The position numbers were made by a program, and so were the translations under genes. The notes beneath the pieces were generated by a model. That model was given only the letters and a program-made list of their open reading frames with translations, ran no database searches and had not been told where the DNA came from. A stretch of DNA of 64,000 bases, taken from the NCBI RefSeq assembly GCF_016774335.1, contig NZ_JAETWA010000006.1, positions 49,330-113,329 of the forward strand. The letters run 5' to 3'. Origin of the DNA: Luteimonas saliphila (GTDB lineage: Bacteria; Pseudomonadota; Gammaproteobacteria; Xanthomonadales; Xanthomonadaceae). Of this stretch, positions 10,299-50,307 are shown one piece after another. Each line of letters starts with the position of its first letter. Position 1 is the stretch's first letter.

Positions 10299-11777
10299 GT
10301 GTGGTCATCGGATTCGCGTCGCCTGGCGCTCGCCACGCGCTTGAGCTATTCATCGCTGCCCTCGACCGGCGACGATGCCTGCTGGGAAGTCGACATCGCC
10401 ACGCGTTCGGTCCGTCACTGGTCGGCGCTTTCGGTTGCCGACGCCGAGTACATCGCCGCGCTCGTTGCCGCGACACCGGCCGCGGACGTGGACGCGGTGG
10501 TGAATGGCCGGCAGGCGCTGGCGGATCCGCCCATGGGCATGGGCGGCGGCCAGGTGATGGCGCGCGCCTGGATGCTGGCACCCGGCTTGGTGTCCAGTTG
10601 GGCCGGCGAGACCCTGAGCCTGGCGCAGGGCTCCGAAGTGCGTGTGCTGAGCGACGCCTGCGCGACGGTCGCTTCGCCGGTGGCGATGCGCAATGGTGGT
10701 CAGTTGATCGTGGTCACGCGCAAGGACGGTCGCTTCGAGGCGATCCGCGTGCACGACGGACAGCATCGAGTGCATACGCTCGAGATGCCGGCGACGGCCA
10801 GCCTGCTGTCCGCGACCGTGGACGGACGCGTGTGGTGTCGGTTGGACGCGAACGATGGCAGTTGGCTCTACGTGGCCGGACGCGACGCATCCGACGTGAC
10901 GTCACCGCTCGTGCTCAACCGGCATCTCGCTGAGATTCGCCGGCCACGTGCACGCGAAGTGGAACGGACCTCCTCGGACGGCAAGCGCCTGACCGGGGTG
11001 CTGATGACGCCTACCAGTACACCCGCGGGAACGCGGTCACCGGTGATCCTCTGGGCCTATCCCAATTCAGTGCCGCGTCTGGATGGCTGGTTGAGCCGGC
11101 TCAACGACGATTCAGCGATCACCTATCCGTTTCAGTATCTGCTGGCGCAGGGTTTCGCCGTGTTCCAGGCGCCGCTGCCGATGCTGGACCGGCCGGACGC
11201 TGCGGAACCGCTGGACTACGTCTCCGGCCTCATCCTGCCTTGGCTGGGCGTGCTGGACCAGCAACCGGAGGTGCAGGCCGGGCAGTACGGGTTCTGGGGG
11301 CATTCCGACGCCGGCTATGTCGCCCTGGCGTTGCTGGCGACGACCGACCGCTTCAAGGCGATCGCCGCGGCATCGACCTTTCCCGATCTTGCGGCAACAC
11401 TGTATTCGGCGCGATTGCCATTCCAGACTTTGGACTGTGCGGCGCACCTGATCCAGACCGACCGCTGGTATTACGAGGCTGATACCCAGCGTTACCGCGT
11501 GGGCGGAAGCCTGTGGCGCAATACCGAGCGCTTCGTTCGCAACAGCGCGCTCTTTCGCTTGGAGCATGCGACCACGCCGACGTTATTGATGGTCGGCGAG
11601 TACGATGCCGTGCCGCGGTCGATGGAACAGGTCTACTCCGTCCTGCACGGGAAGGGCGTGCCGGTGGAGCTGGCCTACTACTGGGGTGAGGGGCACATGA
11701 TCTCCAGTCCCGAGAACCTCCACGATCTTTGGACCCGCAGCGAGCAGTTCTTCCGGCGCAATCTCTGGCTGTCTTGA
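10299..11777 (+). pseudogene. S9 family serine peptidase, 5'-truncated
   Basis: This is the C-terminal two-thirds of an S9/prolyl-oligopeptidase-like enzyme, 492 residues against about 700 for complete relatives in this window. The frame begins in the middle of a beta-propeller blade (VWSSDSRRLALA) with no signal peptide or upstream blades, directly after the stop of the DJ-1-like gene. The alpha/beta-hydrolase domain is intact: nucleophile region GHSDAGY (an unusual Ala in place of the second Gly), Asp region MVGEYDAVP and His region WGEGHMIS. It has conventional Asp chemistry, so it resembles the module-4 peptidase more than the isopeptidase-like ones. It is probably the leftover end of another receptor/peptidase module. 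It may still be translated from the GTG used here. Confidence 0.65.
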
Positions 11778-11985
11778 CCCGATGCGGCCGCGTTCGCGTA
11801 CCACTCGATACACGAGCACTCGAGGGAAGCAGCGACGGGTCCGTGCCCACCCTGACGATCTACCGACTGCGAGGCGAGATCGAAGGCGCAGAGCCGTGCA
11901 TTTCATGACATATGTGGCCGCGCGGGTTCAGGTCGGCCACTTGCAGTGCATTAGGCATTAGGGCAAGAAGGGGCGGGAAGGTCGA

Positions 11986-12064: not shown

Positions 12065-12646
12065 ATGACGGCCATCCACTCATCCATCCGCATGCCCCAG
12101 AGCTGGAAACACACGTTCCTGACTACGATGGCCTCCCTGCACGGGCGGCCGCTGCTGCGTTTCTTCGTTTCCCGGCTGCCCGACGCCGCGGAGGCCCCGG
12201 ACATGGTGCAGGAGGTCTACCTGCGCCTGTTGCGTCTCAACCGGCCCGATCTGATCCAGTCCCCGGAGGCCTACCTGTACACCATCGCCGCCAACATCGC
12301 GCGGGAGCAGCGACTGAAGCTGGTGACTCGCCCGGCGAATATCGCGCTGGACGACGCCCCGGCCGAGGCATTGCCGGCCGATACGGATCCCTTCGCGGCC
12401 GCCACGCCGGAAAGCGCCGCCCTGAACGCGGATCGCCTGGAGCGGCTGCAAACCGTGCTGATGCAACTCTCGCCCAAGGCCCGCGCCTGCTTGGTCTGGC
12501 ACCGCCGCGACGGCCTCACCTACAAGGAGATCGGCGCGCGGCTGGGCATTTCCACCAACATGGTCAAGAAGTACCTGTCCCAGGCGATGGCGCATTGCCA
12601 CCAGCGCCTGGGCGCCGAGCAGGGAGGACCCGAGCGTGTCGCGTGA
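12065..12646 (+). CDS. ECF sigma factor, FecI type (module 1)
   Basis: A 193-residue sigma-70 family factor without region 3 or region 1. Region 2 is LLRFFVSRLPDAAEAPDMVQ followed by EVYLRLLRL. Region 4 is LSPKARACLVWHRRDGLTYK with the helix-turn-helix EIGARLGISTNMVKKYLSQA. The start at MTAIHSSIRM lies downstream of the putative promoter; longer frames would run through that promoter. It overlaps the FecR gene by 11 bases, so the pair is translationally coupled. By analogy with FecI it should direct transcription of the adjacent receptor once FecR releases it. Confidence 0.9.
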   Translation: MTAIHSSIRMPQSWKHTFLTTMASLHGRPLLRFFVSRLPDAAEAPDMVQEVYLRLLRLNRPDLIQSPEAYLYTIAANIAREQRLKLVTRPANIALDDAPAEALPADTDPFAAATPESAALNADRLERLQTVLMQLSPKARACLVWHRRDGLTYKEIGARLGISTNMVKKYLSQAMAHCHQRLGAEQGGPERVA

Positions 12647-13715
12647 CCCGCACGCCATCGCGCCGCAGATCAGCCAGGCTGCTGCCGAGTGGTTCATCAT
12701 CATGCGTGAACCCGTGGTGTCCGAAGCCGACCGGGCCGCGTTCGCCGCCTGGCTGCAGGCTTCGCCCGTGCATGTGCGTGCCTACCTCGAAGTGACCCGG
12801 CTCTGGGGAGACGCCGCGCAGCTCGATCCGGAACTACCGGTAGCAGAGGATTTTGAACTAGCCGCCGCCAACGTGCTGCCGATGCGCGAAGCGGTGCAGC
12901 CACGCAAGGATGCCGCAACGGCCAGCCGCGAACCTGCATCCGCGGCGCCCCCGCGAAAGACACGCCGCCGACCCTTCGCTGTTGCCGCCTCCATCGCACT
13001 CATGGCTGGGTTGGTGGGCGCCGCCATTTGGTGGCAGTTCCATCAGCCGCCGACCTACATCACGGACGTCGGCGAACAGCGCGTCCTCACCTTGGAGGAT
13101 GGTTCGATCATCCGGCTGAACTCCCGCTCCGAGGTCAAGGTGCGGATGCTCCCGACGCAGCGCCTGATCGAACTGGTCGACGGCCAGGCCCTGTTCGAAG
13201 TAGCCAAGGATGCACAGCGCCCGTTCATCGTGCGCAGCGGCAACGTCACCACGCGCGCAGTCGGCACCCAGTTCGACGTCTACCGCAAGCCGACCGGCAC
13301 CGTGGTCACGGTGGTGGAAGGGCAGGTGGAAGTGCGCACCGAACCGGCCGTCCGGAAGGCCGATGCCGACATCGCAGGATTGGCATTGTCGGTATCCGTC
13401 AAGGCGGGCGAACAGGTGATCGTCGGCCGCGCCGGCGCCGTCGAGCAGCACAGGGACGCCAACGTCAACGCCGCCACCCGCTGGCTGCAGCAGGAACTGG
13501 TGTTCGAAGAGCAGCCGCTGAGCGCAGTGGTGGAGGAGTTCAATCGCTACCAGCGCATCCCCATCGTCCTCCACGATCCCGCGCTGGGCGAACTGCGCGT
13601 CAATGCCGTGTTCAACACCACCGGCCCCGAGCCCCTGCTGCGCTTCGTCGGTCGCATGGAGGATGTGCAGGTGGAACGCACTGCCCGGGAAATCCGAATC
13701 ACCAGAAAACAATGA
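12636..13715 (+). CDS. FecR family anti-sigma factor (module 1)
   Basis: A 359-residue inner-membrane sigma regulator starting with GTG. The cytoplasmic N-terminal DUF4880 part includes AAEWFIIMREPVVSEADRAA and WLQASPVHVRAYLEV. A single membrane helix lies near residues 110-130 (FAVAASIALMAGLVGAAIWW). The periplasmic FecR domain has VLTLEDGSIIRLNSRSEVKV, GQALFEVAKDAQRPFIVRSG and AVGTQFDVYR. The C-terminal DUF4974 domain (LVFEEQPLSAVVEEFNRYQR) is expected to contact the STN domain of the receptor. Its stop codon abuts the second copy of the module promoter motif. Confidence 0.92.
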   Translation: MSRDPHAIAPQISQAAAEWFIIMREPVVSEADRAAFAAWLQASPVHVRAYLEVTRLWGDAAQLDPELPVAEDFELAAANVLPMREAVQPRKDAATASREPASAAPPRKTRRRPFAVAASIALMAGLVGAAIWWQFHQPPTYITDVGEQRVLTLEDGSIIRLNSRSEVKVRMLPTQRLIELVDGQALFEVAKDAQRPFIVRSGNVTTRAVGTQFDVYRKPTGTVVTVVEGQVEVRTEPAVRKADADIAGLALSVSVKAGEQVIVGRAGAVEQHRDANVNAATRWLQQELVFEEQPLSAVVEEFNRYQRIPIVLHDPALGELRVNAVFNTTGPEPLLRFVGRMEDVQVERTAREIRITRKQ

Positions 13716-13745: not shown

Positions 13746-13814
13746 ACTCCAGGTGACAGATCAATGACACGCCTCGGGCGCCTGCCTGCGGCATCACTTG
13801 GGGAGAAAGGTTTC

Positions 13815-16505: not shown

Positions 16506-16558
16506 TCTTTACCCGATCTTGGCTTGCAGATATGCGCCGACGGTACTGGAACAGGTTC

Positions 16559-18685
16559 ATGGTAGCGAACAGAATCTCGAAACGGCTTCTGGCTGGCAGC
16601 TTGCTGGTCGCGTTGACCTTCCTATGGCAGGCGCAAGCAACGTCTCCGCGTGCGATCGTCGAGATGGTCGACTTCAACAGTCCGCTGGTTTCGCCAGATG
16701 GCAGCATGGTCACCTTTCGGACAGAGCAAGCTTCCATTGAACACAATCGCTACGAGGCGAATTGGTACGTGCAATCATTGGATGGTGCGCTGCCGCCGCG
16801 TCGGGTGGCTAGTGGTGGCGTTCCCCTGTTCAGTTCTGCTGGATTGCCATTGCCGGCTCATGCCGCTTGGTCGCCAGATGGGCGCTGGATCTATTTTCGC
16901 GCCATGGTGGACGGCAAGATCGACGTATGGCGGGCAGCGACAGACGGATCGGGTGCCGAACCCGTGACACTTGATCCTGCGGATGTCCAGGGTTTTCTGT
17001 TGGGCGTGGATGGGCAGGTACTGAAGTACAGCGTTGGCGCCACCCGCGAAGAGGTCACTGCAGCAGAACTGGCTGAGTACGACCAAGGCATCCACATCGA
17101 TGAATTGACGCCGTTTGGACAAAACCTGTTTCGATCCGGCTACACAGAGGGACGGCTAGCAACACAGCGGTTAGGAAACTGGTGGGACCGGGTTCCGTTG
17201 CGGGCCGATGTGCCGGATCGCTGGAGGGCGGTTGACTTGACAACATGGACGAACCGGGAACTCGACCCATCTGATGTTCCGCCAAAGCCGCTGGTTGCCT
17301 CCGATCTAACTGAGCGGCTGGGCGAAGAGCCTTGGAAGTTGTCACCCGACATACATGGCGGGCGGATCGCCGTTCTGACGCGAGTCGGGAACCGTGCCAA
17401 CTTCCGGGATAAACCCTATGCTGAACTGGCCATGCTACCAAGCAAAGGGCACCACGATCCGGTTAGATGTCAGGCCGAGTTGTGCACGGACAAGGCAATC
17501 ACTGACATTCAATGGAGACCCGATGGTGACGAGGTGCTGTTCACAGTGACCGACCCCGATGAGGGGCTGGCGCAGTCGATCTTCCGATGGAATGTCCGGA
17601 CGGGTGAGGTGCATCCTGTCGCCTATTCCCGTGGCCTGATCAGTGGCGAGATGCGTTGGACGCCCGGCATCTGTGGCGCGTCATCTGCGGCATTGGTCTG
17701 TGTGGCCGCAGAGGCAGATGGACCGCCGCGGCTGGAGCGAATTGATCTGGAAACGGGTGATCGGCAGGTGTTGTTCGATCCAAATGCTGCGCTCGCCCGG
17801 GACATGGAAAATACCGTACGAGTGCGACTTCTCCGCTGGGCGGATGCGGAGGGTCGGCAGTTCACAGGTCAGTACTTTTCGGCGCATCGCACCGGCGCTG
17901 CTCCAGCGCCGCTGTTCGTTAACTACTACAGATGCCTGGGTTTTCTGCGCGGTGGCGTGGGTAATGAGTGGCCTTTGGCGGCAATGGCAAGGAACGGCAT
18001 CTCCGCCCTCTGCATCAATTCGTTGCCACATGACAACAATGCATCAGCGCGCTACGACGCGGGCCGTTTGGCCGTAGAGAGTGTAGTGGAGCTGCTGGCT
18101 GCGGAGGGTGAGGTCGACCGCACCAAGGTAGGTATGGGAGGACTCAGCTTCGGTGCAGAGACGACGCTATGGACGGTCATCCACTCCGATTTGATCACCG
18201 TCGCTTCAGTGGCGACGCCAGTGATTTCACACCTGTACTACCTGCTGGGTAGCATCAGGGGCGACACTTGGTTTTTTTCGCAACTGCAGCGTAACTGGCA
18301 ACTAGGTGCTCCTGATGAGACACCTGAGCAATGGCAGAAGATTTCCCCGGCTATGAACTTGGACAAGATAAAAGCGCCTGTCCTGATGCAGCTGTCGGAG
18401 CAGGAGCTCTTTTTCTCGCTTGACTACGCTATTCCGTTGATTCGGAATCGTCGCGCGGATGTGTATGTCTTCCCGCACGAGCCGCATCAGAAGTTCCAGC
18501 CGCGACACAAGTTTGCCGTGTATCAGAGAAACTTGGACTGGTTTCGATTCTGGCTGCAGGGATTCGAGGACAATGATCCTCGCAAAGCCGAACAGTACAC
18601 GCATTGGCGCACCATGCGATCACATCAGTGCAAGGATGCTGCGAGCATGGGCAATATACCTTGGTACTGTCAATCCAGAGAGTAG
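16559..18685 (+). CDS. AtxE2-type lasso-peptide isopeptidase-like S9 peptidase (module 1)
   Basis: A 708-residue secreted serine hydrolase. It has a signal peptide (LLAGSLLVALTFLWQAQA), a beta-propeller from about residue 35 (SPDGSMVTFRTEQAS, WSPDGRWIYFRA) and an alpha/beta-hydrolase domain from about 440. The likely triad is Ser530 (GGLSFG), Glu616 (SEQEL) and His643 (HEPHQKF). Acidic Glu in place of Asp is the arrangement known for AtxE2, which opens the isopeptide bond of lasso peptides. Paired cysteines (C-x4-C near 310, CGxS-x5-C near 385) and the C-terminal SHQC...PWYC tail recur in the sister genes. Linearising an imported lasso peptide in the periplasm is inferred from family resemblance. 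A general peptidase is the alternative. Confidence 0.78.
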   Translation: MVANRISKRLLAGSLLVALTFLWQAQATSPRAIVEMVDFNSPLVSPDGSMVTFRTEQASIEHNRYEANWYVQSLDGALPPRRVASGGVPLFSSAGLPLPAHAAWSPDGRWIYFRAMVDGKIDVWRAATDGSGAEPVTLDPADVQGFLLGVDGQVLKYSVGATREEVTAAELAEYDQGIHIDELTPFGQNLFRSGYTEGRLATQRLGNWWDRVPLRADVPDRWRAVDLTTWTNRELDPSDVPPKPLVASDLTERLGEEPWKLSPDIHGGRIAVLTRVGNRANFRDKPYAELAMLPSKGHHDPVRCQAELCTDKAITDIQWRPDGDEVLFTVTDPDEGLAQSIFRWNVRTGEVHPVAYSRGLISGEMRWTPGICGASSAALVCVAAEADGPPRLERIDLETGDRQVLFDPNAALARDMENTVRVRLLRWADAEGRQFTGQYFSAHRTGAAPAPLFVNYYRCLGFLRGGVGNEWPLAAMARNGISALCINSLPHDNNASARYDAGRLAVESVVELLAAEGEVDRTKVGMGGLSFGAETTLWTVIHSDLITVASVATPVISHLYYLLGSIRGDTWFFSQLQRNWQLGAPDETPEQWQKISPAMNLDKIKAPVLMQLSEQELFFSLDYAIPLIRNRRADVYVFPHEPHQKFQPRHKFAVYQRNLDWFRFWLQGFEDNDPRKAEQYTHWRTMRSHQCKDAASMGNIPWYCQSRE

Positions 18686-20682: not shown

Positions 20683-21234
20683 ATGACGATGCCAGACACC
20701 CCGCCCGATGGCTTCACCCGGTTCGTTGCAGAGACCTGCCAGTCCCTGCGGCGCTACGTGCAGCGCTTCGTCGGTTCCTCCGTAATGGTGGAGGACATCG
20801 TGCAGGAAGCTTATGTGCGAACCTACGAGCAGGGCCGGAAAGTCGAACAGCCCAAGGCGTTCCTGTTCGTGACGGCGCGTAACCTTGCGCACAATGCACA
20901 CCGGCACGAGCGCATTGCGGCGACCGATCTGGTGGGGGATATCGACTCGACCGGGGCCTGCTTCGATGAGGGACGGTCGCCTGAGGATGGACTGATCGCG
21001 GATGAGGAGGCGCGGTTGCTGCAGCAGGCAGTGGAGCGCTTGCCGCCACAGTGTCGGGCGGCATTCGCGATGAAGGTTTTCCAGGGATGTGCTTACAAGG
21101 AAATCGCCGGAGAATTGGGCATCTCGACCAAGACCGTCGAGAAGCACATCGCCAAGGGGCTGCGCGAGACGCACGCATTCATGAGCCGCCGCTACCAGCT
21201 TTCCGGCAAGGACCCGAGGCGGTCGCATGAGTGA
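20683..21234 (+). CDS. ECF sigma factor, FecI type (module 2)
   Basis: A 183-residue sigma factor. Region 2 is SLRRYVQRFVGSSVMVEDIV followed by QEAYVRTYEQ and FLFVTARNLAHN. Region 4 is LPPQCRAAFAMKVFQGCAYK with the helix-turn-helix EIAGELGISTKTVEKHIAKG. The start is the first of two nearby Met codons. It overlaps the FecR-2 gene by eight bases. It is clearly different in sequence from the module-1 factor, consistent with its own promoter specificity. Confidence 0.92.
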   Translation: MTMPDTPPDGFTRFVAETCQSLRRYVQRFVGSSVMVEDIVQEAYVRTYEQGRKVEQPKAFLFVTARNLAHNAHRHERIAATDLVGDIDSTGACFDEGRSPEDGLIADEEARLLQQAVERLPPQCRAAFAMKVFQGCAYKEIAGELGISTKTVEKHIAKGLRETHAFMSRRYQLSGKDPRRSHE

Positions 21235-22228
21235 CATCCATCGATTGCCGGATGTGGAAACCGCGATGAGCGAGGCCAGCGAGTGGATTGCGCGGTTGCA
21301 GGCTGAAGACGTCAGGGTCGAGGATCGCGTGCGCTTCGAAGCCTGGCGGACGGCGCATCCCCGCAATGGCCGTGCCTATGCTGAGCTGATGGGCACTTGG
21401 AGCCGGTTCACGGCGGCTGGCCGCACCGTGCGTGCGGTATCGTTCGGAAATGCGATGCAAGGCGCCACCCGTGCGCGGCGGCGTCGCGGATTCCTGAGCA
21501 TGGCTGCGGCCGCCATTGTGGCCGTCGTAGCCCTGGGGTGGTGGTGGCAACATCAGCCGCCTTCCAGCTTCGAGACAGGCATCGGAGAACACGCATCAAT
21601 CGCGCTCCCCGATGGTTCCCGGCTGGAACTCAACAGCAACAGTGCCGTGCGTGTGGACTACAGCGATGCGGCACGGGTAATCCACCTGGCGCGTGGCGAG
21701 GCGTTCTTCACCGTGGCACATGCACCGGAGCGCCCGTTCTGGGTCGTGGCCGATCGCACCTGGGTGCGAGCGGTTGGTACAGCCTTCAACGTCTATCGCC
21801 GCGAGGATGGCGTGCGCGTGACGGTCAGCGAGGGTCGGGTCAAGGTAGCCACCGTCGCCAGCCGTGGAGCGCCGTCGGACGCAGTGCTCGAACGAGTCCC
21901 CGCGTCGCTGCTTGGTGCAGGCCAGCAGGCAGAGATGCAGGGCACACACGCCAGCGTGCGCGCGTTGCCGGCACCGGAGGTCCACCGTGAAGTTTCCTGG
22001 CGCAGCGGCACCGTCTATTTCGAGGATCGCCCGCTCGATGAAGTCATCGACGAGATCAGTCGTTACACCCCCTTGCGGATCGAAGTCGGCCCGCGGGCGC
22101 GGACGATGACTGTCGGCGGCACGTTCCAGACCAATCCACAGGGTGCCGAGATGCTGCTTGCCATGCTGAAGGAAGGCTTGGGGCTGGAGGTGCGCCGCGA
22201 CGGCAAACAGCGCGTCTACGTAGATTAG
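21227..22228 (+). CDS. FecR family anti-sigma factor (module 2)
   Basis: A 333-residue membrane sigma regulator. The N-terminal DUF4880 part has ASEWIARLQAEDVRVEDRVR and RTAHPRNGRAYAELM. The membrane helix lies near residues 90-106 (LSMAAAAIVAVVALGWWW). The periplasmic FecR domain has IALPDGSRLELNSNSAVRVD, GEAFFTVAHAPERPFWVVA and AVGTAFNVYR. The C-terminal DUF4974 domain begins at VYFEDRPLDEVIDEISRYTP. Four to five consecutive Arg before the helix (RARRRR) fit an inside-positive orientation. Confidence 0.92.
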   Translation: MSDIHRLPDVETAMSEASEWIARLQAEDVRVEDRVRFEAWRTAHPRNGRAYAELMGTWSRFTAAGRTVRAVSFGNAMQGATRARRRRGFLSMAAAAIVAVVALGWWWQHQPPSSFETGIGEHASIALPDGSRLELNSNSAVRVDYSDAARVIHLARGEAFFTVAHAPERPFWVVADRTWVRAVGTAFNVYRREDGVRVTVSEGRVKVATVASRGAPSDAVLERVPASLLGAGQQAEMQGTHASVRALPAPEVHREVSWRSGTVYFEDRPLDEVIDEISRYTPLRIEVGPRARTMTVGGTFQTNPQGAEMLLAMLKEGLGLEVRRDGKQRVYVD

Positions 22229-34446: not shown

Positions 34447-35016
34447 ATGGCCAATGATCTCGACGACTGGTTCGCACGCGAGATCCTCGCGCATGAGCCC
34501 GCACTGATGCGCTATCTACTGCGCTGGTGGCCGCATCGCGATGATGCAGCGGATCTTCGTCAGGAGATCTACATCCGCGTCTACGAGACGTCGGCCGCGG
34601 CCTTGCCGGCGCATCCCAAGTCGCTGCTGTTCACTACCGCCCGTAACCTGATGACCGATCGCTGGCGGCGCAGCCGGGTGGTGCCGCTGGAAGCCCTGGG
34701 GGAGATCGATGCGCCGCAACTCCCGGTGGACGAGATCACGCCGGATCGACGGCTGGCTGCACAGCGTGAGCTGCGCAGCCTGGTGCGGGCTTTCGATCGC
34801 CTGCCACCGCAGCGCCGCAAGGTGCTGTGGTTGCGTCGCGTGGAGGAGTTGTCGATCAAGCAGATCGCCGAGCGCATGGGCATTACCCCGAAGACCGCCG
34901 AGAACCACTTGGCGCTCGCCACCCGGGCGATCACCGCCATGGTGCTGGGCGGAAGCGATTGTCCGCTGCCGCCTGCGCTGGCGCACTACGAGGAAGGACA
35001 TGGCGAACAACGCTGA
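34447..35016 (+). CDS. ECF sigma factor, FecI type (module 4)
   Basis: A 189-residue sigma factor. Region 2 has LMRYLLRWWPHRDDAADLRQ followed by EIYIRVYETS and LLFTTARNLMTDRWRR. Region 4 has LPPQRRKVLWLRRVEELSIK with the helix-turn-helix QIAERMGITPKTAENHLALA. The start at MANDLDDWF aligns with the module-5 factor (MAERDALKDWF), its closest relative here. Upstream in-frame codons give a basic, unlikely extension. It overlaps FecR-4 by 17 bases. Confidence 0.92.
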   Translation: MANDLDDWFAREILAHEPALMRYLLRWWPHRDDAADLRQEIYIRVYETSAAALPAHPKSLLFTTARNLMTDRWRRSRVVPLEALGEIDAPQLPVDEITPDRRLAAQRELRSLVRAFDRLPPQRRKVLWLRRVEELSIKQIAERMGITPKTAENHLALATRAITAMVLGGSDCPLPPALAHYEEGHGEQR

Positions 35017-36049
35017 AATCGAGCGAATCGCCGGCGAATGGCTGGCCCGGCGCGAGTCCGGCTGGGACGCTGCCGAGCAGGCGCGGTTCCAGTCGTGGCT
35101 GGAGGCGTCCACCGCGCATCGCGTGGCTTGGATTCGGCTGGAGGCGGGCTGGCAACGTGCCGCGCGGCTGAAGGCACTGGCCGCGGGACTGCCGGCCGGG
35201 GAGGTCCCCCCCGTCGGCGCCTGGCCCGAACTTCCGGGTGTGGAACCCCCGCAGGGGGACGCTGCCGATCCCGCGGCGGATCTGCATGCGTTCGTGTTTC
35301 GCGCGCCGGTGCCTCGGCGTGAGCGCAGGTGGGCACGCCGGTCCGCAACGGCCGCCTTGCTGTTGCTCAGCATCTGCATGGCAGGTTGGTGGTACGTCGG
35401 CGGGCTCGAACATGCCGCCTATGCCACCGCATTGGGCGAGACGCAACGGCTGCGGCTCAGCGACGGATCGGTGATCGTACTCAGCAGCGACAGCCGCGTG
35501 GAGCTCGCCTATGCCCGTCGCAAGCGCAGCCTGCGCCTCGAGCGAGGGGAGGTGTTTTTCGAAGTGGCGTCGGATCCGGATCGCCCGTTCTCGGTCGAGG
35601 CCGAAGGTCGTCGGGTAGTGGCCATCGGCACGCAGTTCTCGGTGCGGCGCGACGTCGGTGAACTACGCGTGGCGGTCACCGAAGGCCGCGTTCGCCTGGA
35701 GGATCAGGCGACAGGAGACTCCCCGACGCTGTTGATCGCGGGCATGGTCGCATCGGCCGGCAGCGAGGGGGTGCGGCTGCGGCAATCATCGCCGGAGCAG
35801 GTCGAGGATATGCTGCGTTGGCGCGAGGGCATGCTGGTCTTTCGCAGCACGCCGCTTGCCGAGGCGGTGGCCGAGTTCAATCGCTACAACGCGCACAAGC
35901 TATTAGTGGACGACCCGTCGATCGCCGATATTCCGGTCGGAGGCACTTTCCGCTGGGCCAATGCCGAAGCTTTCGTCCGCGTGCTGGAGCAGGGCTTCGG
36001 AATCAGTGCCGAGCGTGGGGACGCCGAGACTCGTCTGCATTCACGATGA
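35000..36049 (+). CDS. FecR family anti-sigma factor (module 4)
   Basis: A 349-residue membrane sigma regulator with a good ribosome-binding site (GAGGAAGG). The DUF4880 part has AGEWLARRESGWDAAEQARF and WLEASTAHRVAWIRLEAGW. A Pro-rich stretch follows, then a membrane helix near residues 116-132 (AALLLLSICMAGWWYVGG). The FecR domain has LRLSDGSVIVLSSDSRVELA, GEVFFEVASDPDRPFSVEA and AIGTQFSVRR. The C-terminal DUF4974 domain starts at MLVFRSTPLAEAVAEFNRYN. A much longer frame in the same register begins inside the sigma gene and is rejected. Confidence 0.92.
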   Translation: MANNAEIERIAGEWLARRESGWDAAEQARFQSWLEASTAHRVAWIRLEAGWQRAARLKALAAGLPAGEVPPVGAWPELPGVEPPQGDAADPAADLHAFVFRAPVPRRERRWARRSATAALLLLSICMAGWWYVGGLEHAAYATALGETQRLRLSDGSVIVLSSDSRVELAYARRKRSLRLERGEVFFEVASDPDRPFSVEAEGRRVVAIGTQFSVRRDVGELRVAVTEGRVRLEDQATGDSPTLLIAGMVASAGSEGVRLRQSSPEQVEDMLRWREGMLVFRSTPLAEAVAEFNRYNAHKLLVDDPSIADIPVGGTFRWANAEAFVRVLEQGFGISAERGDAETRLHSR

Positions 36050-36162
36050 CCCAACCGCGTGCGGCCTGTCGGATCAATCCGATTGGGGGAGGGCTGCCCG
36101 CTTCGCGTCACGGCATGCACAGGGTCCCGGTGCGGGGCCTGCCGGGGAATGAGGCAACGATA

Positions 36163-43857: not shown

Positions 43858-44433
43858 ATGGCCGAGCGTGACGCCCTGAAGGACTGGTTCCAGCGCGAAG
43901 TGCTGCCTTTGGAGGGAGCGCTGATGCGCTACCTGCGGCGCAACTGGCGGGTCGAGGCAGAGGTGCCGGACCTGCGCCAGGATATCTACGTGCGCATGTA
44001 CGAGGCGGCCTGCCGGCAGGTGCCGCAAAATCCCCAATCATTTCTGTTCGTCACCGCGCGCAACCACCTGATCGACCGGGCGCGGCAGGCCAGCATCGTT
44101 TCGTTCGACCAGGTGGCGGATCTGGAGAACGCGCTGCCGCCGGAAGAGGCGCTGACGCCCCTGCGGGTGGCCAGTTCGCGCGAGGAACTGCGCCGCGTGC
44201 AGGCAGGCCTGGACACCCTGCCGCCGCGCTGCCGCGAGGTGATCGTGCTGCGCAAGGTGCAGGGACTGTCGCAGAAGGAGACCGCCATGCAACTCGGGGT
44301 CAGCATCAAGGCGGTCGAGCAGCAGACCACGCGCGGCATGCGCACGCTGATCGACTTCGTGCTCGGCGGCGGCGCGACCGACCGCCGAGCTGCGCACGAC
44401 ACCAGCGACAAGGAGGCCGAGCATGAGCGTTGA
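43858..44433 (+). CDS. ECF sigma factor, FecI type (module 5)
   Basis: A 191-residue sigma factor. Region 2 is LMRYLRRNWRVEAEVPDLRQ followed by DIYVRMYEAA and FLFVTARNHLIDRARQ. Region 4 is LPPRCREVIVLRKVQGLSQK with the helix-turn-helix ETAMQLGVSIKAVEQQTTRG. It is closest in this window to the module-4 factor. It overlaps FecR-5 by 11 bases and has an ECF-type promoter close upstream, consistent with autoregulation. Confidence 0.93.
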   Translation: MAERDALKDWFQREVLPLEGALMRYLRRNWRVEAEVPDLRQDIYVRMYEAACRQVPQNPQSFLFVTARNHLIDRARQASIVSFDQVADLENALPPEEALTPLRVASSREELRRVQAGLDTLPPRCREVIVLRKVQGLSQKETAMQLGVSIKAVEQQTTRGMRTLIDFVLGGGATDRRAAHDTSDKEAEHER

Positions 44434-45376
44434 ACGTATCGAACAGCAGGCCGTGCATTGGCTGGAGCGCCGCGAGCAGCCGGAATGGAGCGCCGTCGAC
44501 CAGGCCGCGCTCGATGTCTGGCTGGACGAGGCTACCGAGCACAAGCTGGCCTACTGGCGGCTGGAACATGGCTGGGCCAAGGTGGGCCGACTGGCCGCGC
44601 TGCGCGAAGTGCCACCGGCGACCCGCACGCCCCGTCGCAGCCTCCGGTTGTGGAGACCGGCGGCGATCGCGGCCTCATTGGCCGCGGTGGTGGCCGTCGG
44701 GCTGCTGTTGCTCGATATCCTGCCGGATCAGGGCAGGGAACATTACGAAACCCCCGTCGGCGGCCGGCAGACGCTGCCGCTGAGGGACGGTTCGCGCGTC
44801 GAGCTCAGTACCGATACCCGGATGCGCGCGGCCGTCACCGAAGAGGTGCGCGAAATCTGGCTCGACCGCGGAGAGGCCTACTTCGAGGTGAGGCACGACG
44901 CGCAACGGCCCTTCGTGGTCTGGGCCGGCGATCGCAAGGTAACGGTGCTCGGCACTAAATTCTCGGTCCGCCGCGACGGCGATGCGGTGCGGGTGGCGGT
45001 CGCCGAAGGCCGCGTCCGGGTGGAGCCGGCGAAATCGGATGCGCCGATGCGCCCGGAAGTGCTCGGACAGGGCGACATCGTGGTTGCGAAGGGCGTATCG
45101 ACGCTGGTCGCCAGTGCATCGGTGGAGCAGGTCGCCAACGCACTCAGTTGGCGTCGCGGCATGCTGAGCTTCGACCAGACAACGCTGGCCGAGGCTGCGG
45201 CGGAGTTCAACCGCTACAACGCCACCAAGCTTGTGCTGGGCGATCCGGGCGCCGCGCAGATCCGCATCGGCGGCACCTTCGAGGCGGAGAATGCGGATGC
45301 ATTCGCGCGACTACTCGGCTCGGCCTATGGCCTGCGTGTGGAGCATCGCGACGGCGAGATCGAGATTTCCCGTTGA
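44423..45376 (+). CDS. FecR family anti-sigma factor (module 5)
   Basis: A 317-residue membrane sigma regulator. The DUF4880 part has IEQQAVHWLERREQPEWSAV and WLDEATEHKLAYWRLEHGW. The membrane helix is near residues 80-95 (AIAASLAAVVAVGLLLLDI). The FecR domain has LPLRDGSRVELSTDTRMRAA, GEAYFEVRHDAQRPFVVWAG and VLGTKFSVRR. The C-terminal DUF4974 domain starts at MLSFDQTTLAEAAAEFNRYN. The TBDT copy of the promoter motif begins seven bases after its stop codon. Confidence 0.93.
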   Translation: MSVERIEQQAVHWLERREQPEWSAVDQAALDVWLDEATEHKLAYWRLEHGWAKVGRLAALREVPPATRTPRRSLRLWRPAAIAASLAAVVAVGLLLLDILPDQGREHYETPVGGRQTLPLRDGSRVELSTDTRMRAAVTEEVREIWLDRGEAYFEVRHDAQRPFVVWAGDRKVTVLGTKFSVRRDGDAVRVAVAEGRVRVEPAKSDAPMRPEVLGQGDIVVAKGVSTLVASASVEQVANALSWRRGMLSFDQTTLAEAAAEFNRYNATKLVLGDPGAAQIRIGGTFEAENADAFARLLGSAYGLRVEHRDGEIEISR

Positions 45377-45382
45377 GGGGAT

Positions 45383-45448: not shown

Positions 45449-48106
45449 ATGGGCCGCAACAGACTGATGAAATCACTGCTCGCCGGTGCCTGCGCGCTGG
45501 TGCTTGCCAGCGGCGCGGCGTATGCGCGATCGCGCGACTTCGACGTCCCGGCGGGTGACCTGAAGGTCGCGCTAGATGCCTATGCGCGCCAGTCCGGCTT
45601 GCAGCTCATCTACCGGGTGGAGGACATCCGCGGTATACGGTCGCAGGGCGTGCGCGGGGCACTCGCGTCGGAAGAGGCGCTGGAGCGCATCCTCGCGGGA
45701 ACAGGATTTTCCGTGGTGCGCGACGCGAGTGGTGCGGCGGCGATCGTCAGGACTTCCGGCCAGCCGCGGCCGGAAAACGGCGCACGGCAGGAGCCGGCGC
45801 CGACGGGCCAATCGGCGGCCACCGAACCGCAGGAGGCGCCAGCTGCGGATGCGGTTTCCCGGAGCGCCCCCTCCGCCGAAGTCGGCGACTTGGACACGAT
45901 CGTCGTTACCGGCACCCGCATCCGCGGCGAGGGGGGCGCGGCACCGGCCTATATCTTCTCTCAGGAGGATTTCATCGCCAGCGGGGCCAGCTCCGTCCAG
46001 CAGGTGCTGCGGACGCTGCCGCAGAACTTCACGGGCGGCAGTTCGGAGACGGCCAGCGCCGTTGTCTCGACGCGCAACGGCAACGAGAACAACGTCGCCT
46101 TCGGCGCCGGCGTCAATCTCCGCGGTCTCGGCACGGAGTCCACGCTGGTGCTGCTCAACGGCCGTCGCCTGGCGCCGGGCGGGTTCGGGAACCTCACCGA
46201 CATGTCCATCGTGCCGCTCGGTGCGCTCAAGCGCATCGAGGTCGTGCCCGATGGCGCTTCGGCCATCTACGGATCGGACGCCGTCGGCGGAGTGGTGAAC
46301 CTGATCCTGCGCGACGATTTCGAAGGTGCGGAAACGCGGCTGCGCTACGGCACGGTCACCGACGGCAGCTTGCGCCAGTACGGCGCCAGCCAGCTCTGGG
46401 GCACCGCCTGGGACACGGGCGCGGTGCTGTTCAACCTCGACTACAGCCGCAACGAGCCACTGTTCGCTAGCGAACGTCCTTACGCGACCGGCCTGCAGCA
46501 GGGCACCACCCATCTGAGCCCCGGCGACGAGCGCCGCAGCCTGTTCATCAACGGTCAGCAGGACCTGACCGCCGACATGACGTTGTCGGCAGTTTTCTAC
46601 GACACGTCGCGCGATTTCGAAAGCATGATGTACGAGGCGGTCGCCGTTCGCCAGAGCAGGTACACCGGCACGACTGACCAGCGCGGCGGGACGCTCGCGC
46701 TGGATTGGCGTGCCGGCGACGATTGGACGTGGACGCTGGCGCATACGCGCAGCGGAACGGACGTCGAACGCAGGAATTTCTTCGGGGCTGGTCCTTCCGG
46801 GCCTGCGTTCGAGACCTGGGTGTTCTCGAGCCATGACGTCGCCGCGACGGAACTCGAGGCCGAGGGACGCGTCTTCGCTCTGCCGGGTGGCGAGGCGCGA
46901 CTCGCCTTCGGTGCCGAACGACGCGCGGAGGAGCTCTCCGTTCATCGCATCACGGGCGACGCCAGACTCAGGCATGAGCGGAAGGTAGGCGCCGGGTACG
47001 CGGAACTCTTCCTGCCATTGGTGGGCGAGGCCAACGCCAACGCATTCGCGAAGCGCCTCAATCTCACGCTCGCCACGCGCTACGAAGACTACGACGATGT
47101 CGGCGCTGCCGACACCTACAAGATCGGCCTGCTCTGGTCGCCGGTCGACAGCGTGAACCTGCGCGCGACCTACGGCACGTCCTTTCGCGCGCCCTATCTC
47201 TACCAGTACGATGCGAGCCTGAGCGGTGGCCTGGTCATCGACCTGCCCGATCCTGCGTCGGCGACGGGAACGACGCGCACCGCGATCGTGCTCCAGATGC
47301 CGGATTCGGACCTGGGCCCGGAGAACGCGACGATCTGGACGACCGGCTTCGACATCGACCCGGACCTGTTCGGGCTCCGCGTATCAGCCACCTATTTCGA
47401 CATCGACTACAAGGATCGCATCCGGGCGGCGCGCTTCACCGGAGCCGTCTTCACCGATCCGTCGCTGATGCCGCTGCTGAGCAGGCCGCCGGCTCCGGAA
47501 CAGATGGCCCTGCTCGATGAAGTTGCCCAGTTCTTCAACCTCACGCCCGGCGACCTCAGCACGGTGGAGGCATTCTTCGACGGGCGCACGCGCAACCAGG
47601 CCAGCACCCGGATGCGTGGCATCGACGTCAACATCGGCAAGGATTTCGCCACGCGCCATGGCGCCTTCTCCGCCGCCCTCAACCTCAGCAGGCTGCTGGC
47701 CCACGACATCCGCGAAGTCGCCGCCCTGCCGCCCGTCGACATCCTCGACACCATCTACAATCCGCTCGACCTGCGTGCACGCGCGAGCCTGGTCTGGAGC
47801 AAGGGCGCCTGGTCCGCCTCGGCGTTCGTCAACTACGCCGACGACTACGTGGACAACCAGCTGCCGGAAACGCCCTCCGGCGTTTCCTCCTGGACCACCG
47901 TGGATCTCGGCCTCGGCTATGCGTTCAGTGGCCGGATCCCGTGGCTTCGCGGGCTGTCGCTGCAGCTCAACGCCCTCAATGCCTTCGACCGGGATCCGCC
48001 GCGGATCACCGACCTGCTGTCATCGTACGGCAGCCCGGGCTACGACACCGAGAACGCCAGTCCGTTCGGACGCATCGTGTCCCTCGAGGTCCGCAAGTCA
48101 TGGTGA
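45449..48106 (+). CDS. TonB-dependent receptor with STN signalling domain (module 5)
   Basis: An 885-residue outer-membrane transducer, with a GGGGAGAGGAAGG ribosome-binding region. The signal peptide is LLAGACALVLASGAAYA. The STN domain (about residues 30-95) has FDVPAGDLKVALDAYARQSG. The plug starts near residue 150 (IVVTGTRIRGEGGAAPAYIF, VNLRGLGTESTLVLLNGRRL, GASAIYGSDAVGGVVNLILR). The barrel ends in LEVRKSW with a terminal Trp. It is the most divergent of the five receptors; its plug lacks the TPSPVI...IGSERI text shared by the others. Its stop codon overlaps the peptidase start by seven bases, so the two are translationally coupled. Confidence 0.93.
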   Translation: MGRNRLMKSLLAGACALVLASGAAYARSRDFDVPAGDLKVALDAYARQSGLQLIYRVEDIRGIRSQGVRGALASEEALERILAGTGFSVVRDASGAAAIVRTSGQPRPENGARQEPAPTGQSAATEPQEAPAADAVSRSAPSAEVGDLDTIVVTGTRIRGEGGAAPAYIFSQEDFIASGASSVQQVLRTLPQNFTGGSSETASAVVSTRNGNENNVAFGAGVNLRGLGTESTLVLLNGRRLAPGGFGNLTDMSIVPLGALKRIEVVPDGASAIYGSDAVGGVVNLILRDDFEGAETRLRYGTVTDGSLRQYGASQLWGTAWDTGAVLFNLDYSRNEPLFASERPYATGLQQGTTHLSPGDERRSLFINGQQDLTADMTLSAVFYDTSRDFESMMYEAVAVRQSRYTGTTDQRGGTLALDWRAGDDWTWTLAHTRSGTDVERRNFFGAGPSGPAFETWVFSSHDVAATELEAEGRVFALPGGEARLAFGAERRAEELSVHRITGDARLRHERKVGAGYAELFLPLVGEANANAFAKRLNLTLATRYEDYDDVGAADTYKIGLLWSPVDSVNLRATYGTSFRAPYLYQYDASLSGGLVIDLPDPASATGTTRTAIVLQMPDSDLGPENATIWTTGFDIDPDLFGLRVSATYFDIDYKDRIRAARFTGAVFTDPSLMPLLSRPPAPEQMALLDEVAQFFNLTPGDLSTVEAFFDGRTRNQASTRMRGIDVNIGKDFATRHGAFSAALNLSRLLAHDIREVAALPPVDILDTIYNPLDLRARASLVWSKGAWSASAFVNYADDYVDNQLPETPSGVSSWTTVDLGLGYAFSGRIPWLRGLSLQLNALNAFDRDPPRITDLLSSYGSPGYDTENASPFGRIVSLEVRKSW

Positions 48107-50307
48107 CCGCGACCCGACGCGCGCGCACCGCTGCGCTCTGCCTGCTGACGCTGGTATCCGCGGACGCCTGGGCGGACCCGTCGCCGGCCGGGACTCCCGG
48201 CATACCCTCGGTTCCGATCCCCGCGCCGGCCCCGGCGGAGATGCGGCTGATCACCACGGACGATCTGGCGCGCATCCGCGACATCGATACATTGAGCATT
48301 TCCCCCGATGGCGCGCGCTTCGCCATCCTCGTACGCCAGGCCGATCCGGAAGCGAACACCTATCGCATGGCCTGGTATGTGGGGCAGTTGGACGGGGGCG
48401 CGCTCACCTACGTAGGCGACGGCGGCGAGGCGCGTCTCATGACGTCGCCCAACGGTATACAGACCGGCGATTTCGAAGCCAGCCCCGCGCGATGGTCGCC
48501 AGATGGAAGCTCGATCGCCTACACGGTGCGGCGGATCGGCGAAGTGCAGCTCTGGACGAGCCGGACCGATGGCAGCGGTCAGCGCCAGGTCACGCGCAAC
48601 GCAGCCGATGTGCGCGATTTCGCCTGGAACGAGGATGGGCGTTCGCTCTTCTTCACTGTGGGTCAGGCTCGAGCGGCGCTGGCTGCGCGCCATGAGGCGG
48701 TGGAACGCAGCGGGCATCCGCTGCAGAGCTTCAGGACGCTTTACCACGCGGTCAATTCCGGCCCACCGCTGCCGTCGCTGGACGCGGCATTGGCCACCTG
48801 GATCGTGGACGCAGACGGGCGCGACGAACGCGCGGCGGCCGAGGCCGAGCAGGATGACTTCACCGCGATCCGCGAGCGCCAGTCGGGTGGCGGCGTGGCC
48901 GAGATCTCCGCGGCGCTTCGACCCCCGGTGATCGCCGCCGACGGTGCGATGGCGTGGCTGGAGCGCGACGATCCCGGGCAGACCGGCATGTTTCCCTTCG
49001 GCCGGCTTCGCGCGACCCTGGCGCCCGGCGGCGATCCCGTCGTGTGCGGGGATCCGCGCTGCGCAGGACAGATCATCCGCGAGATCTGGTGGCGCGACAC
49101 TGCGGACGAGGTGGCGATCTGGAGCCTCGACGGGCCGACCGACCTGCGCCAGAGCCTCTATGCATGGTCGCCACGGTCGGGGGCGGTTCGTACGGTCTTC
49201 TCCAGCGCCGAGACGCTTCTCGAAGCCTGCGGTCTCTCGCGCCATCGCCTTGTCTGCCTACGGGAAACTCCGCTCGAACCGCGCCATGTGGCTGCCATCG
49301 ACATCGCCAGCGGTGCGGTGACGAAGATCGCCGACGTCAATCCGGAGTTCGCGAACTTCCGCCTCGGGCGCGCCGAGCGGATCGAATGGGACACCGCAGC
49401 CGACATCGCGCGCATGGGCTATGCGCCGCGCGCGGGCGGCATCGTGCTCTATCCGCCGGATTACGATCCAGCCCGCGCGTACCCGCTGTTCGTCGCGCCC
49501 TACGCCTCGGGGCGCTTCCTGCGCGGGGACGTGGGCGACGAGCATCCGCTGCTGGTCTATGCGGCCAACGGATTCGTCGTGCTGAACTCCGCCTTCCCCC
49601 ACGCCATTCGCGCGTTCGTCGAGGGCGACGCCAACGTACTCGCCCAGCGTGCCTACGATCCGGCGTTCGATTACCCGCATCTGACCATGCTCAGCGAGAC
49701 GACGTTCGCTGGCATGGATACCGTCGCCGAACGCGCGAACATCGATGCCGCGCGGGCTGGGACGGGGGGCGTCAGCCACGGCGCCTTCGTGCCGCTGTAC
49801 ATGGTGCAGAAGCGCGACCGCTTCGCTGCGCTCTCCGTGGCGCATGGGAGCTGGCAGGACCTGGAGTATCACTTTGCCCGCCTTCCCTATCCTTATGGCG
49901 ATCAGCCGCAGCCGATGTTTCCCAAGGACGATGCCTTCTGGAAGCCGATCGATCTGCGCTGGCATCTCGATGAGGTCGAAGCGCCGGTGCTGTTTCACGC
50001 CGCCGCGGTGGAACTCCTCGGCATGGTGCGCCTGATCCGTGCAATGAGCGACGCGCGCCTGCCGTTCGAGGCGTACAGCTTCAACGACGAAACGCACATG
50101 AAGTGGCAACCCGCGCATCGGCTCACGATCTACGACCGCAACCTCGACTGGTTCCGGTTCTGGCTGCAGGACATCGAGGATCCCGATCCGGCCAAGGCGG
50201 AGCAGTACGAACGCTGGCGCCAGCTTCGTGAGCTGCAGTGCAAGAACCCGCGTTCGGTCCGCGACTATTGCGGCGTCGTCAGCACCCATGTGCAGATCGA
50301 ACACTGA
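48100..50307 (+). CDS. AtxE2-type lasso-peptide isopeptidase-like S9 peptidase (module 5)
   Basis: A 735-residue secreted hydrolase with signal peptide TAALCLLTLVSADAWA and a Pro-rich junction after it. The start ATG overlapping the receptor stop was preferred to a longer frame lying inside the receptor gene. The propeller begins at SISPDGARFAILVRQADPEA. The predicted triad is Ser559 (GGVSHG), Glu638 (AVELLG) and His666 (DETHMKW). C-x4-C (CGDPRC), CGLS-x5-C and the C-terminal RELQC...DYC tail match the pattern of modules 1 and 3. NLDWFRFWLQDIEDPDPAKA is close to the same segment in the sister enzymes. It is the most divergent family member, matching its receptor. Confidence 0.8.
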   Translation: MVTATRRARTAALCLLTLVSADAWADPSPAGTPGIPSVPIPAPAPAEMRLITTDDLARIRDIDTLSISPDGARFAILVRQADPEANTYRMAWYVGQLDGGALTYVGDGGEARLMTSPNGIQTGDFEASPARWSPDGSSIAYTVRRIGEVQLWTSRTDGSGQRQVTRNAADVRDFAWNEDGRSLFFTVGQARAALAARHEAVERSGHPLQSFRTLYHAVNSGPPLPSLDAALATWIVDADGRDERAAAEAEQDDFTAIRERQSGGGVAEISAALRPPVIAADGAMAWLERDDPGQTGMFPFGRLRATLAPGGDPVVCGDPRCAGQIIREIWWRDTADEVAIWSLDGPTDLRQSLYAWSPRSGAVRTVFSSAETLLEACGLSRHRLVCLRETPLEPRHVAAIDIASGAVTKIADVNPEFANFRLGRAERIEWDTAADIARMGYAPRAGGIVLYPPDYDPARAYPLFVAPYASGRFLRGDVGDEHPLLVYAANGFVVLNSAFPHAIRAFVEGDANVLAQRAYDPAFDYPHLTMLSETTFAGMDTVAERANIDAARAGTGGVSHGAFVPLYMVQKRDRFAALSVAHGSWQDLEYHFARLPYPYGDQPQPMFPKDDAFWKPIDLRWHLDEVEAPVLFHAAAVELLGMVRLIRAMSDARLPFEAYSFNDETHMKWQPAHRLTIYDRNLDWFRFWLQDIEDPDPAKAEQYERWRQLRELQCKNPRSVRDYCGVVSTHVQIEH

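What the first reader, a model, noticed from the sequence alone, without database searches (positions are those of the whole stretch)
10299..50307. Tandem array of five sigma/FecR/TBDT/peptidase modules, four with lasso-isopeptidase-like enzymes and no lasso biosynthesis genes
Seen: five same-strand four-gene modules (12065-18685, 20683-27194, 27406-33962, 34447-40936, 43858-50307), each with overlapping sigma-fecR genes, an STN-type TBDT and a secreted peptidase. Known: AtxE2-type isopeptidases lie with TBDT and FecI/FecR genes in lasso-peptide clusters. Inference: this is a repertoire for sensing, importing and linearising lasso peptides made by others, because no precursor, macrolactam synthetase (asparagine-synthetase-like), transglutaminase-like protease or RRE protein is visible. 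Scavenging, detoxification or eavesdropping would all fit.
Basis: partly seen in the sequence, partly recalled or inferred. Interest (0 to 1): 0.92.

Follow-up and report, generated by a model that had tools for sequence, protein, structure and literature searches.

The report
Tandem receivers for foreign lasso peptides
A bacterium carries side by side four gene sets that each pair a surface sensor-importer with an enzyme of the family that opens knotted "lasso" peptides, with no lasso-making genes beside them, so it likely senses, imports and cuts lasso peptides made by other species; in related bacteria such sets look as if they were assembled by joining a signalling half to a recognition half of the kind found in lasso makers.

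Summary
In detail: five sigma/FecR/STN-TBDT/peptidase modules, four with AtxE2-family isopeptidases (497-634 bits, cut-off 400); module 4 carries an ordinary S9 peptidase. No lasso biosynthesis gene was found in the window, but the same genome has two lasso clusters on other contigs, each with its own isopeptidase. So this is a likely lasso producer with an extra receiver repertoire.

Among 69 modules of the order, biosynthesis-free "receivers" carry adjacent sigma+FecR in 16 of 18 cases, producer clusters in 1 of 51. Receivers interleave with producers in the trees, several being sister to a producer of another species. In 0 of 12 testable receivers is the own cluster the nearest producer. 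Across 18 modules sigma, FecR and STN co-vary (r 0.77-0.88), plug+barrel and isopeptidase co-vary (r 0.92), but the two blocks do not (r -0.12 to 0.08); in alphaproteobacterial producer operons, the control, they do (0.54-0.81). Receivers thus look built from a signalling chassis and a ligand cassette joined between STN and plug. One relative has five receivers beside its own lasso cluster.

Best reading: likely piracy of, or eavesdropping on, foreign lasso peptides. Ligands of the window's modules are unassigned; nothing was tested at the bench.

The parts
12065..12646 (+). Module 1 ECF sigma factor
   Evidence: Pfam sigma regions 2 and 4; ATG at 12065
12636..13715 (+). Module 1 FecR anti-sigma factor
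   Evidence: PF04773 77 bits
13764..16505 (+). Module 1 TonB-dependent receptor with STN
   Evidence: STN 54, plug 59, barrel 105 bits; GC3 falls after STN, 0.75 to 0.55-0.59
16532..18685 (+). Module 1 AtxE2-family isopeptidase E1
   Evidence: NF033523 617 bits, cut-off 400; triad columns invariant
20683..21234 (+). Module 2 ECF sigma factor
   Evidence: Pfam
21227..22228 (+). Module 2 FecR
   Evidence: PF04773 82 bits; 71% and 68% identical to FecR of L055 and L171
22274..25048 (+). Module 2 STN-TBDT
   Evidence: STN 30, plug 62, barrel 111 bits
25119..27194 (+). Module 2 AtxE2-family isopeptidase E2
   Evidence: NF033523 634 bits; best solved structure AtxE2
27406..27987 (+). Module 3 ECF sigma factor
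   Evidence: Pfam
27984..28988 (+). Module 3 FecR
   Evidence: PF04773 84 bits; ATG at 27984
29157..31787 (+). Module 3 STN-TBDT
   Evidence: STN 31, plug 58, barrel 118 bits; GC3 falls after STN, 0.81 to 0.69-0.72
31842..33962 (+). Module 3 AtxE2-family isopeptidase E3
   Evidence: NF033523 633 bits; in a starred clade with producers L182 and L195 and a G433 receiver
34447..35016 (+). Module 4 ECF sigma factor
   Evidence: Pfam
35000..36049 (+). Module 4 FecR
   Evidence: PF04773 77 bits; ATG at 35000
36115..38775 (+). Module 4 STN-TBDT
   Evidence: STN 31, plug 70, barrel 137 bits
38786..40936 (+). Module 4 S9 peptidase, not AtxE2-family
   Evidence: 124 bits with NF033523, cut-off 400; best solved structure an S9 peptidase, 8wt1, 113 bits against 56 for AtxE2
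43858..44433 (+). Module 5 ECF sigma factor
   Evidence: Pfam
44423..45376 (+). Module 5 FecR
   Evidence: PF04773 79 bits
45449..48106 (+). Module 5 STN-TBDT
   Evidence: plug 55, barrel 97 bits, STN 25 bits (below the cut-off 28.4)
48100..50307 (+). Module 5 AtxE2-family isopeptidase E5, divergent
   Evidence: NF033523 497 bits (from 48229 on); predicted fold matches AtxE2 first; likely ATG at 48100

Best explanation
This is a tandem array of four modules, each with a sigma factor, an anti-sigma factor, a TonB-dependent receptor and an AtxE2-family isopeptidase but no lasso biosynthesis genes found beside them, by which a bacterium that itself carries two lasso clusters likely senses, imports and linearises lasso peptides made by other species. 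Proposed mechanism, inferred from the protein families: a foreign lasso peptide binds the barrel; the STN domain signals through FecR and frees the sigma factor; the sigma factor raises expression of that receptor and isopeptidase; the threaded peptide is pulled in and opened by cutting its isopeptide bond. What the cell gains (amino acids, a bound cargo, a signal, or protection) is undecided. Evolution, shown by sequence in relatives and less clearly in the window: receivers combine a signalling chassis (sigma, FecR, STN) with a ligand cassette (plug, barrel, isopeptidase) of the kind found in other species' producer clusters, joined between STN and plug.
For: Four peptidases pass the AtxE2 cut-off, keep Ser/Glu/His in invariant columns, and E5 folds like AtxE2 in prediction. 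No B, C or precursor found in the window. Receivers have sigma+FecR in 16 of 18 cases, producers of the order in 1 of 51; on nine independent pairs the association goes the same way in 8.6 on average and never the other way. Receivers interleave with producers, at least 12 (isopeptidase) and 15 (receptor) label changes being forced by starred branches. Own cluster nearest in 0 of 12. Chassis and cassette identities are uncorrelated in receivers but correlated in 11 alphaproteobacterial producer modules, with a sharp switch at DNA level in G433 module 2. Five receivers in a row in G433. One genome with a receiver and no B2 gene, G060. Published parallel: MbnT2 with MbnI2/MbnR2 takes up a foreign methanobactin (PMC9601215 passages).
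Against: No binding, import, induction or cleavage was tested. Eight of ten receiver genomes also hold lasso B2 genes, so own-peptide sensing is not excluded. No window module has a close producer match (best isopeptidase identity 60-63% for E1-E3, 38% for E5), and for none of the four does the nearest producer by isopeptidase come within the first three by receptor (ranks 36, 5, 23, 49 of 51 for modules 1, 2, 3, 5). For module 5 the own enzymes rank 3rd and 15th. The STN/plug GC3 switch is seen in modules 1 and 3 only. Receptor-isopeptidase agreement may reflect linkage alone. Eight of 51 producers also have STN-type receptors.
Confidence: 0.7

Rival explanations
1. Self-handling: the array recaptures and opens the host's own two lasso peptides, or times their production.
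For: The genome carries two lasso clusters; eight of ten receiver genomes hold B2 genes; G433's array lies beside its own cluster.
Against: Each own cluster already has its own receptor and isopeptidase. Own enzymes rank 37th-49th of 51 producers for E1-E3. The review read says isopeptidases act only on the peptide of their own cluster (PMC9266682 passages). G060 has a receiver and no B2 gene.
Confidence: 0.1
2. Defence: the modules take in and destroy antimicrobial lasso peptides of competitors, the uptake being induced by the peptide.
For: The enzyme family cuts lasso peptides; sigma/FecR/STN would give induction by the ligand (family knowledge).
Against: Active import of a toxin is an odd defence; known isopeptidase-type lasso peptides, except astexin-1, are reported to lack antimicrobial activity (PMC9266682 passages).
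Confidence: 0.1
3. The peptidases have left lasso peptides and the modules take up other peptides or nutrients.
For: Module 4 has an S9 peptidase outside the AtxE2 family in the same module layout; E5 and its receptor are divergent.
Against: E1-E3 score as high as the enzymes of the two lasso clusters (617-634 against 626-631 bits); receivers in relatives are up to 91% identical to producer enzymes.
Confidence: 0.07
4. The modules are remains of lasso clusters that lost their biosynthesis genes.
For: Receivers nest among producers in both trees.
Against: Receivers carry sigma/FecR that producers of this order nearly always lack; frames are intact; dN/dS 0.16-0.29 in six receiver-producer pairs of relatives (pairwise, so not specific to the receiver branch); no B, C or precursor found.
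Confidence: 0.03

Closest known systems
Isopeptidase-containing lasso clusters (astexin/AtxE2, benenodin, sphingopyxin, rubrinodin)
   Same: AtxE2-family isopeptidase next to a TBDT, often with a FecI/FecR pair (PMC9266682 passages; 11 of 12 alphaproteobacterial producer loci here have the pair beside at least one receptor)
   Different: No precursor, B or C beside the modules; several in tandem; in this order the sigma/FecR pair marks receivers rather than producers
Foreign-methanobactin uptake by MbnT2 with MbnI2/MbnR2 in Methylosinus trichosporium OB3b (PMC9601215, passages)
   Same: A RiPP producer takes up another species' RiPP through a receptor with STN plus ECF sigma/anti-sigma; the other species' own receptor lacks STN (plug 69%, barrel 61% identical)
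   Different: Methanobactin is a copper-binding RiPP; no ring-opening hydrolase was mentioned in the passages seen; no tandem array or chassis/cassette split was mentioned there
PfeA/PirA + PfeE enterobactin piracy in Pseudomonas aeruginosa (PMC8001512, abstract)
   Same: A foreign ligand is imported by a TBDT and opened by a dedicated hydrolase in a species that makes its own siderophores
   Different: The ligand is a siderophore and the enzyme an esterase; its regulation by two-component systems is recalled, not from a call
Cell-surface signalling (FecIRA; FpvA and FoxA type)
   Same: ECF sigma, FecR, TBDT with STN
   Different: Here the ligand part includes an isopeptidase and reassorts with the signalling part; the ligand is inferred to be a lasso peptide

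Membership tests
AtxE2-family lasso peptide isopeptidase | Over the curated score of NF033523 (400 bits) | tested here: met
   Four of five peptidases: 617, 634, 633, 497 bits
AtxE2-family lasso peptide isopeptidase | Over the curated score of NF033523, module 4 | tested here: not met
   124 bits
AtxE2-family lasso peptide isopeptidase | Ser-Glu-His triad of AtxE2 (Ser527, Glu610, His638, counted on the printed alignment) | tested here: met
   Aligned columns are invariant in E1, E2, E3, E5 and the two cluster enzymes
AtxE2-family lasso peptide isopeptidase | Open propeller plus alpha/beta hydrolase fold | tested here: met
   Only E5 was modelled: first hit AtxE2, TM 0.83/0.87, then SpI-IsoP
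AtxE2-family lasso peptide isopeptidase | Cuts the isopeptide bond of a threaded lasso peptide | not testable with these tools
   Needs an enzyme assay
Isopeptidase-containing lasso biosynthesis cluster | Precursor, B and C genes beside the isopeptidase | tested here: not met
   None found in the window; present on contigs C20 and C44
FecIRA-type cell-surface signalling | ECF sigma, FecR and TBDT with STN in one locus | tested here: met
   5 of 5 modules; module 5's STN below the curated cut-off
FecIRA-type cell-surface signalling | Ligand-induced sigma activity | not testable with these tools
   Needs a reporter assay
Heterologous RiPP receptor (MbnT2 type) | STN-bearing receptor in one species related to the receptor of another species' producer | tested here: inconclusive
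   Clear in relatives (for example G433 module 2 and the G497 producer); for the window the best producer receptors are 62-68% identical for modules 1-3 and 35% for module 5

The most novel reading that the evidence does not exclude
Bacteria of this order take part in a lasso-peptide social network: lasso makers also keep tandem repertoires of surface receivers for other species' lasso peptides, and the repertoires evolve by plugging receptor-isopeptidase cassettes from foreign producer clusters into reusable sigma/FecR/STN signalling chassis, so that ligand and output are re-wired independently.
Probability: 0.55. Interest if true: 0.9.

Novelty: new variant of a known kind. Interest (0 to 1): 0.8.

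Why it matters
A review calls the role of isopeptidase-type lasso peptides enigmatic (PMC9266682 passages). Receivers without biosynthesis genes point to a role between species and make it testable: in relatives, the match between a receiver and another species' producer names a concrete lasso core to try. The chassis/cassette split also offers a natural set of chimaeric receptors for studying and re-wiring surface signalling.

Tried and rejected
Tested and rejected: the peptidases as generic dipeptidyl peptidases (true only of module 4); receivers as one clade; receivers as recent copies of the host's own cluster (own cluster nearest in 0 of 12); receivers as decaying clusters; the asparagine-synthase-like gene 7.4 kb left of the window (C4:40829-41950, 283 bits with PF00733) as a lasso cyclase: its fragment scores best with asparagine synthase (196 bits) and 134 against a cut-off of 525 with the lasso cyclase model, this genome's own cyclases do not find it, and B2 genes were found only on C20 and C44.

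Led nowhere: the first marker gene (an aminotransferase-like gene of the window) gave 29-36% identity in all nine genomes, so rpoB was used. A first precursor motif missed many producers and gave chance hits; a second also gave chance hits, including in receiver loci; counts rest on the strict motif, which misses L173 (a likely precursor was seen there). The paper searches for orphan isopeptidases, lasso + FecR, lasso + isopeptidase + signaling, and eavesdropping or piracy listed no paper on lasso receivers without biosynthesis genes; only listings were seen for most papers, and the library lacks most subscription papers, so this is no proof of absence from print.

Rows dropped or limited: duplicates of one locus (89 modules to 85); L070 and L064 from the isopeptidase tree (83 rows), also L060 from the receptor tree (82 rows); L071, a near-copy of L065, from the alphaproteobacterial control, which also lacks L059_9959 (no FecR); L060, L070 and L073 from the order counts; L064 from the nearest-producer ranks (17 of 18). 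L060, a biosynthesis-free contig named Maritimibacter, is almost identical to a Sphingopyxis producer enzyme and starts near a contig end, so it was not used. Where a producer has two precursors the first found was used. Genome searches scored at most 4 or 3 candidates per genome, and one search kept 80 of 189, so receivers are probably under-counted: G433 has six modules but three were listed. G556 and G573 look like one genome (identical B2 places).
Full report
Where it is. The window is G000:C4:49330-113329, the end of a 113 kb contig in a 4.65 Mb genome of 48 contigs. By rpoB it is about as close to two Luteimonas (89.9 and 91.4% amino-acid identity) as to two genomes of its own genus group (89.8 and 89.9%), with Stenotrophomonas 88.5%, Pseudoxanthomonas 86.3% and Rhodanobacter 78.7%: probably Luteimonas or a near genus of the Lysobacteraceae.

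Observation. Five sigma-fecR-TBDT-peptidase modules on the + strand are confirmed. Four peptidases pass the curated AtxE2 cut-off; the fourth does not and resembles an S9 peptidase. With a profile of the six isopeptidases of this genome, AtxE2 is the best solved structure (322 bits; the next molecule, 5jrk, which names the sphingopyxin I isopeptidase, has 90). AtxE2's Ser527, Glu610 and His638, counted on the printed alignment, face invariant columns. E5, the most divergent, was modelled (mean pLDDT 83.5, pTM 0.88); its first match is AtxE2 (TM 0.83/0.87), then the sphingopyxin I isopeptidase. E1-E3 were not modelled.

The genome carries lasso clusters. NF033523 passes its cut-off at six places: four in the window, one each on C20 and C44. 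Beside the latter two lie B2 and cyclase-like genes, GntR-like regulators and TBDTs and precursors with predicted cores GPLGPQEGTGEGRPVIPGISDE (C20) and GPGVAGEGNGTPIGVGISEE (C44). The benenodin model hits the C44 precursor below its cut-off (25.5 against 33), and the cyclases stay below the cut-offs of the named cyclase models. C20 is a 12.6 kb contig of unknown place, so one cluster could lie near the array.

Comparison set. NF033523 was searched in 297 genomes of the family (24 with a hit) and 398 of the order (36 with a hit; the sets overlap), and relatives came from named genomes. Contexts were fetched and scored with local profiles. After removing duplicates the order gives 69 modules: 51 with lasB or lasC nearby (producers) and 18 without (receivers). 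In the family sample, 25 of 27 non-own isopeptidases are in producer clusters. Sigma+FecR lie beside 16 of 18 receivers and 1 of 51 producers (Fisher p 1e-12). The exceptions are L049 (neither gene found), L064 (a 4.2 kb contig that keeps FecR) and the producer L171. A receptor long enough for STN is found in 18 of 18 receivers and 8 of 51 producers. Pfam finds STN hits in those 8 producers (two below the cut-off, L195 and L171), in the two further receivers tested (L049, L187) and in 0 of 10 shorter producer receptors; 33 producer and 12 receiver receptors were not put to Pfam. On nine phylogenetically independent pairs sigma+FecR follow receiver status in 8.6 on average, never the other way, with no difference in 0.4 (median p 0.004).

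Arrays recur. G433, of another family of the order, has five receivers in a row at C16:146022-180331, one with a divergent sigma-fecR pair, next to its own producer cluster at 182315-189592. Two tandem receivers lie in G558 (L202) and in a Rhodanobacter MAG (L063). Of ten genomes with receivers in this set, eight have a B2 gene; G060 (99% complete) and the MAG of L064 do not.

Receivers and producers interleave. In the isopeptidase tree (83 rows) the label needs 15 changes, at least 12 forced by starred branches; in the receptor tree (82 rows, region before the plug trimmed) 17 and 15. Random labels need about 17, so receivers are hardly clustered at all. Pairs seen in both trees: G433 module 2 with the G497 producer, G433 module 5 with the G558 producer, G558's L202_13352 with the G418/G481 producers, L063_16733 with G463/G566, L048 with G186 and relatives. 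The nearest producer by isopeptidase is also the first by receptor in 8 of 17 receivers and within the first three in 10 of 17. It is not for any of the window's four (ranks 36, 5, 23 and 49 of 51 for modules 1, 2, 3, 5), for G433 modules 1 and 4 (20, 16), or for L155 (6). Where the genome's own cluster is known it is the nearest producer in 0 of 12; for modules 1-3 own enzymes rank 37th-49th of 51, for module 5 3rd and 15th, at only 34-36% identity.

Chassis and cassette. In 18 modules with all parts (17 receivers, one of them from the alphaproteobacterium Hephaestia, and the producer L171), identity matrices of sigma, FecR and STN agree (r 0.77-0.88), those of plug+barrel and isopeptidase agree (r 0.92), and across the two groups r is -0.12 to 0.08. 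Without Hephaestia, and without the two divergent modules, the picture stays, though receptor-isopeptidase agreement falls to 0.63 in the last case. In 11 alphaproteobacterial producer modules with the same five parts the groups do agree (r 0.54-0.81). Mantel p-values treat modules as exchangeable, which related modules are not. Examples: G433 module 1 and a Rhodanobacter receiver share sigma 95%, FecR 91%, STN 98%, but barrel 54-64% and isopeptidase 55%. G433 module 5 and G060 share 68/66/86% over sigma/FecR/STN, with isopeptidase 32%. At DNA level G433 module 2 is 70-90% identical to the G558 module up to about base 2700 and 52-68% beyond, while from about base 2400 to its end it is 91-97% identical to the G497 producer. 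In the window, module 2 shares its chassis type with Luteimonas XNQY3 (L055) and L171 (FecR 71 and 68%), whose isopeptidases are 53% identical to E2 and fall in other clades (E2's own place is weakly supported). GC3 drops after STN in modules 1 and 3 but not in 2, 4 or 5. So the split is strongly shown in relatives and only suggested in the window.

Ligands. Among 50 producers with a core, core similarity rises with isopeptidase identity from 0.22 (below 55%) to 1.0 (above 90%, three pairs), r 0.69. Inheritance in one cluster suffices to explain this, but it allows prediction: G433 module 2 would match GGTGQSEANGFPVIPGISED and module 5 GVLPIGNEFMGHAATPGITE. At 60-63% identity the window's modules 1-3 cannot be assigned; module 3 leans to the L182/L195 type by tree; module 5 matches none.

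Selection. Six receiver-producer pairs of relatives give pairwise dN/dS 0.16-0.29 over the isopeptidase, which speaks against decay but cannot be pinned to the receiver branch.

Interpretation. Shown: gene content, family membership, two own clusters, recurrence of arrays, interleaving, and the chassis/cassette split in relatives. Inferred: lasso binding, import, induction, cleavage, and that the ligand is foreign. The nearest tested precedent is uptake of a foreign methanobactin through STN-bearing MbnT2 with MbnI2/MbnR2 (PMC9601215 passages). PfeE is a receptor-plus-hydrolase parallel (PMC8001512 abstract). Isopeptidases are reported to act on the threaded peptide of their own cluster, and their purpose is called enigmatic (PMC9266682 passages); a siderophore-like role has been proposed (PMC11006600 passages). 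I therefore file it as a new variant of a known kind: surface-signalling piracy modules, here for lasso peptides and with exchangeable halves.

Noticed in passing
window 34447-40936: Module 4 has the same sigma/FecR/STN-TBDT layout but an S9 peptidase outside the AtxE2 family; its ligand class is unknown.
   Followed up: partly
window 50532-51380: A class D beta-lactamase-like gene lies just after the array (198 bits with the class D model, below its cut-off of 250).
   Followed up: no
window 51919-61605: Minus-strand genes after the array: alginate-export-like porin, MFS_3 transporter related to EntS, amidohydrolase, isochorismatase-like and two PLP-enzyme-like genes.
   Followed up: no
L178:637-5026: A producer of the same genus group has an extra sigma/FecR/STN-TBDT set beside its cluster with no isopeptidase next to it in the stretch held.
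   Followed up: no
L171:3478-9956: The one producer of the order whose own receptor carries the receiver-type sigma/FecR/STN chassis, with a GntR gene on either side of the cluster.
   Followed up: partly
L163:5327-5830, L165:14576-15085, L168:4751-5254: Sigma-like genes near producer clusters without a FecR beside them.
   Followed up: no
L189, L191, L192, L205 against L182, L195, L197, L199: Isopeptidase and receptor trees group these producers differently, hinting that receptor and isopeptidase are also exchanged separately at times.
   Followed up: no
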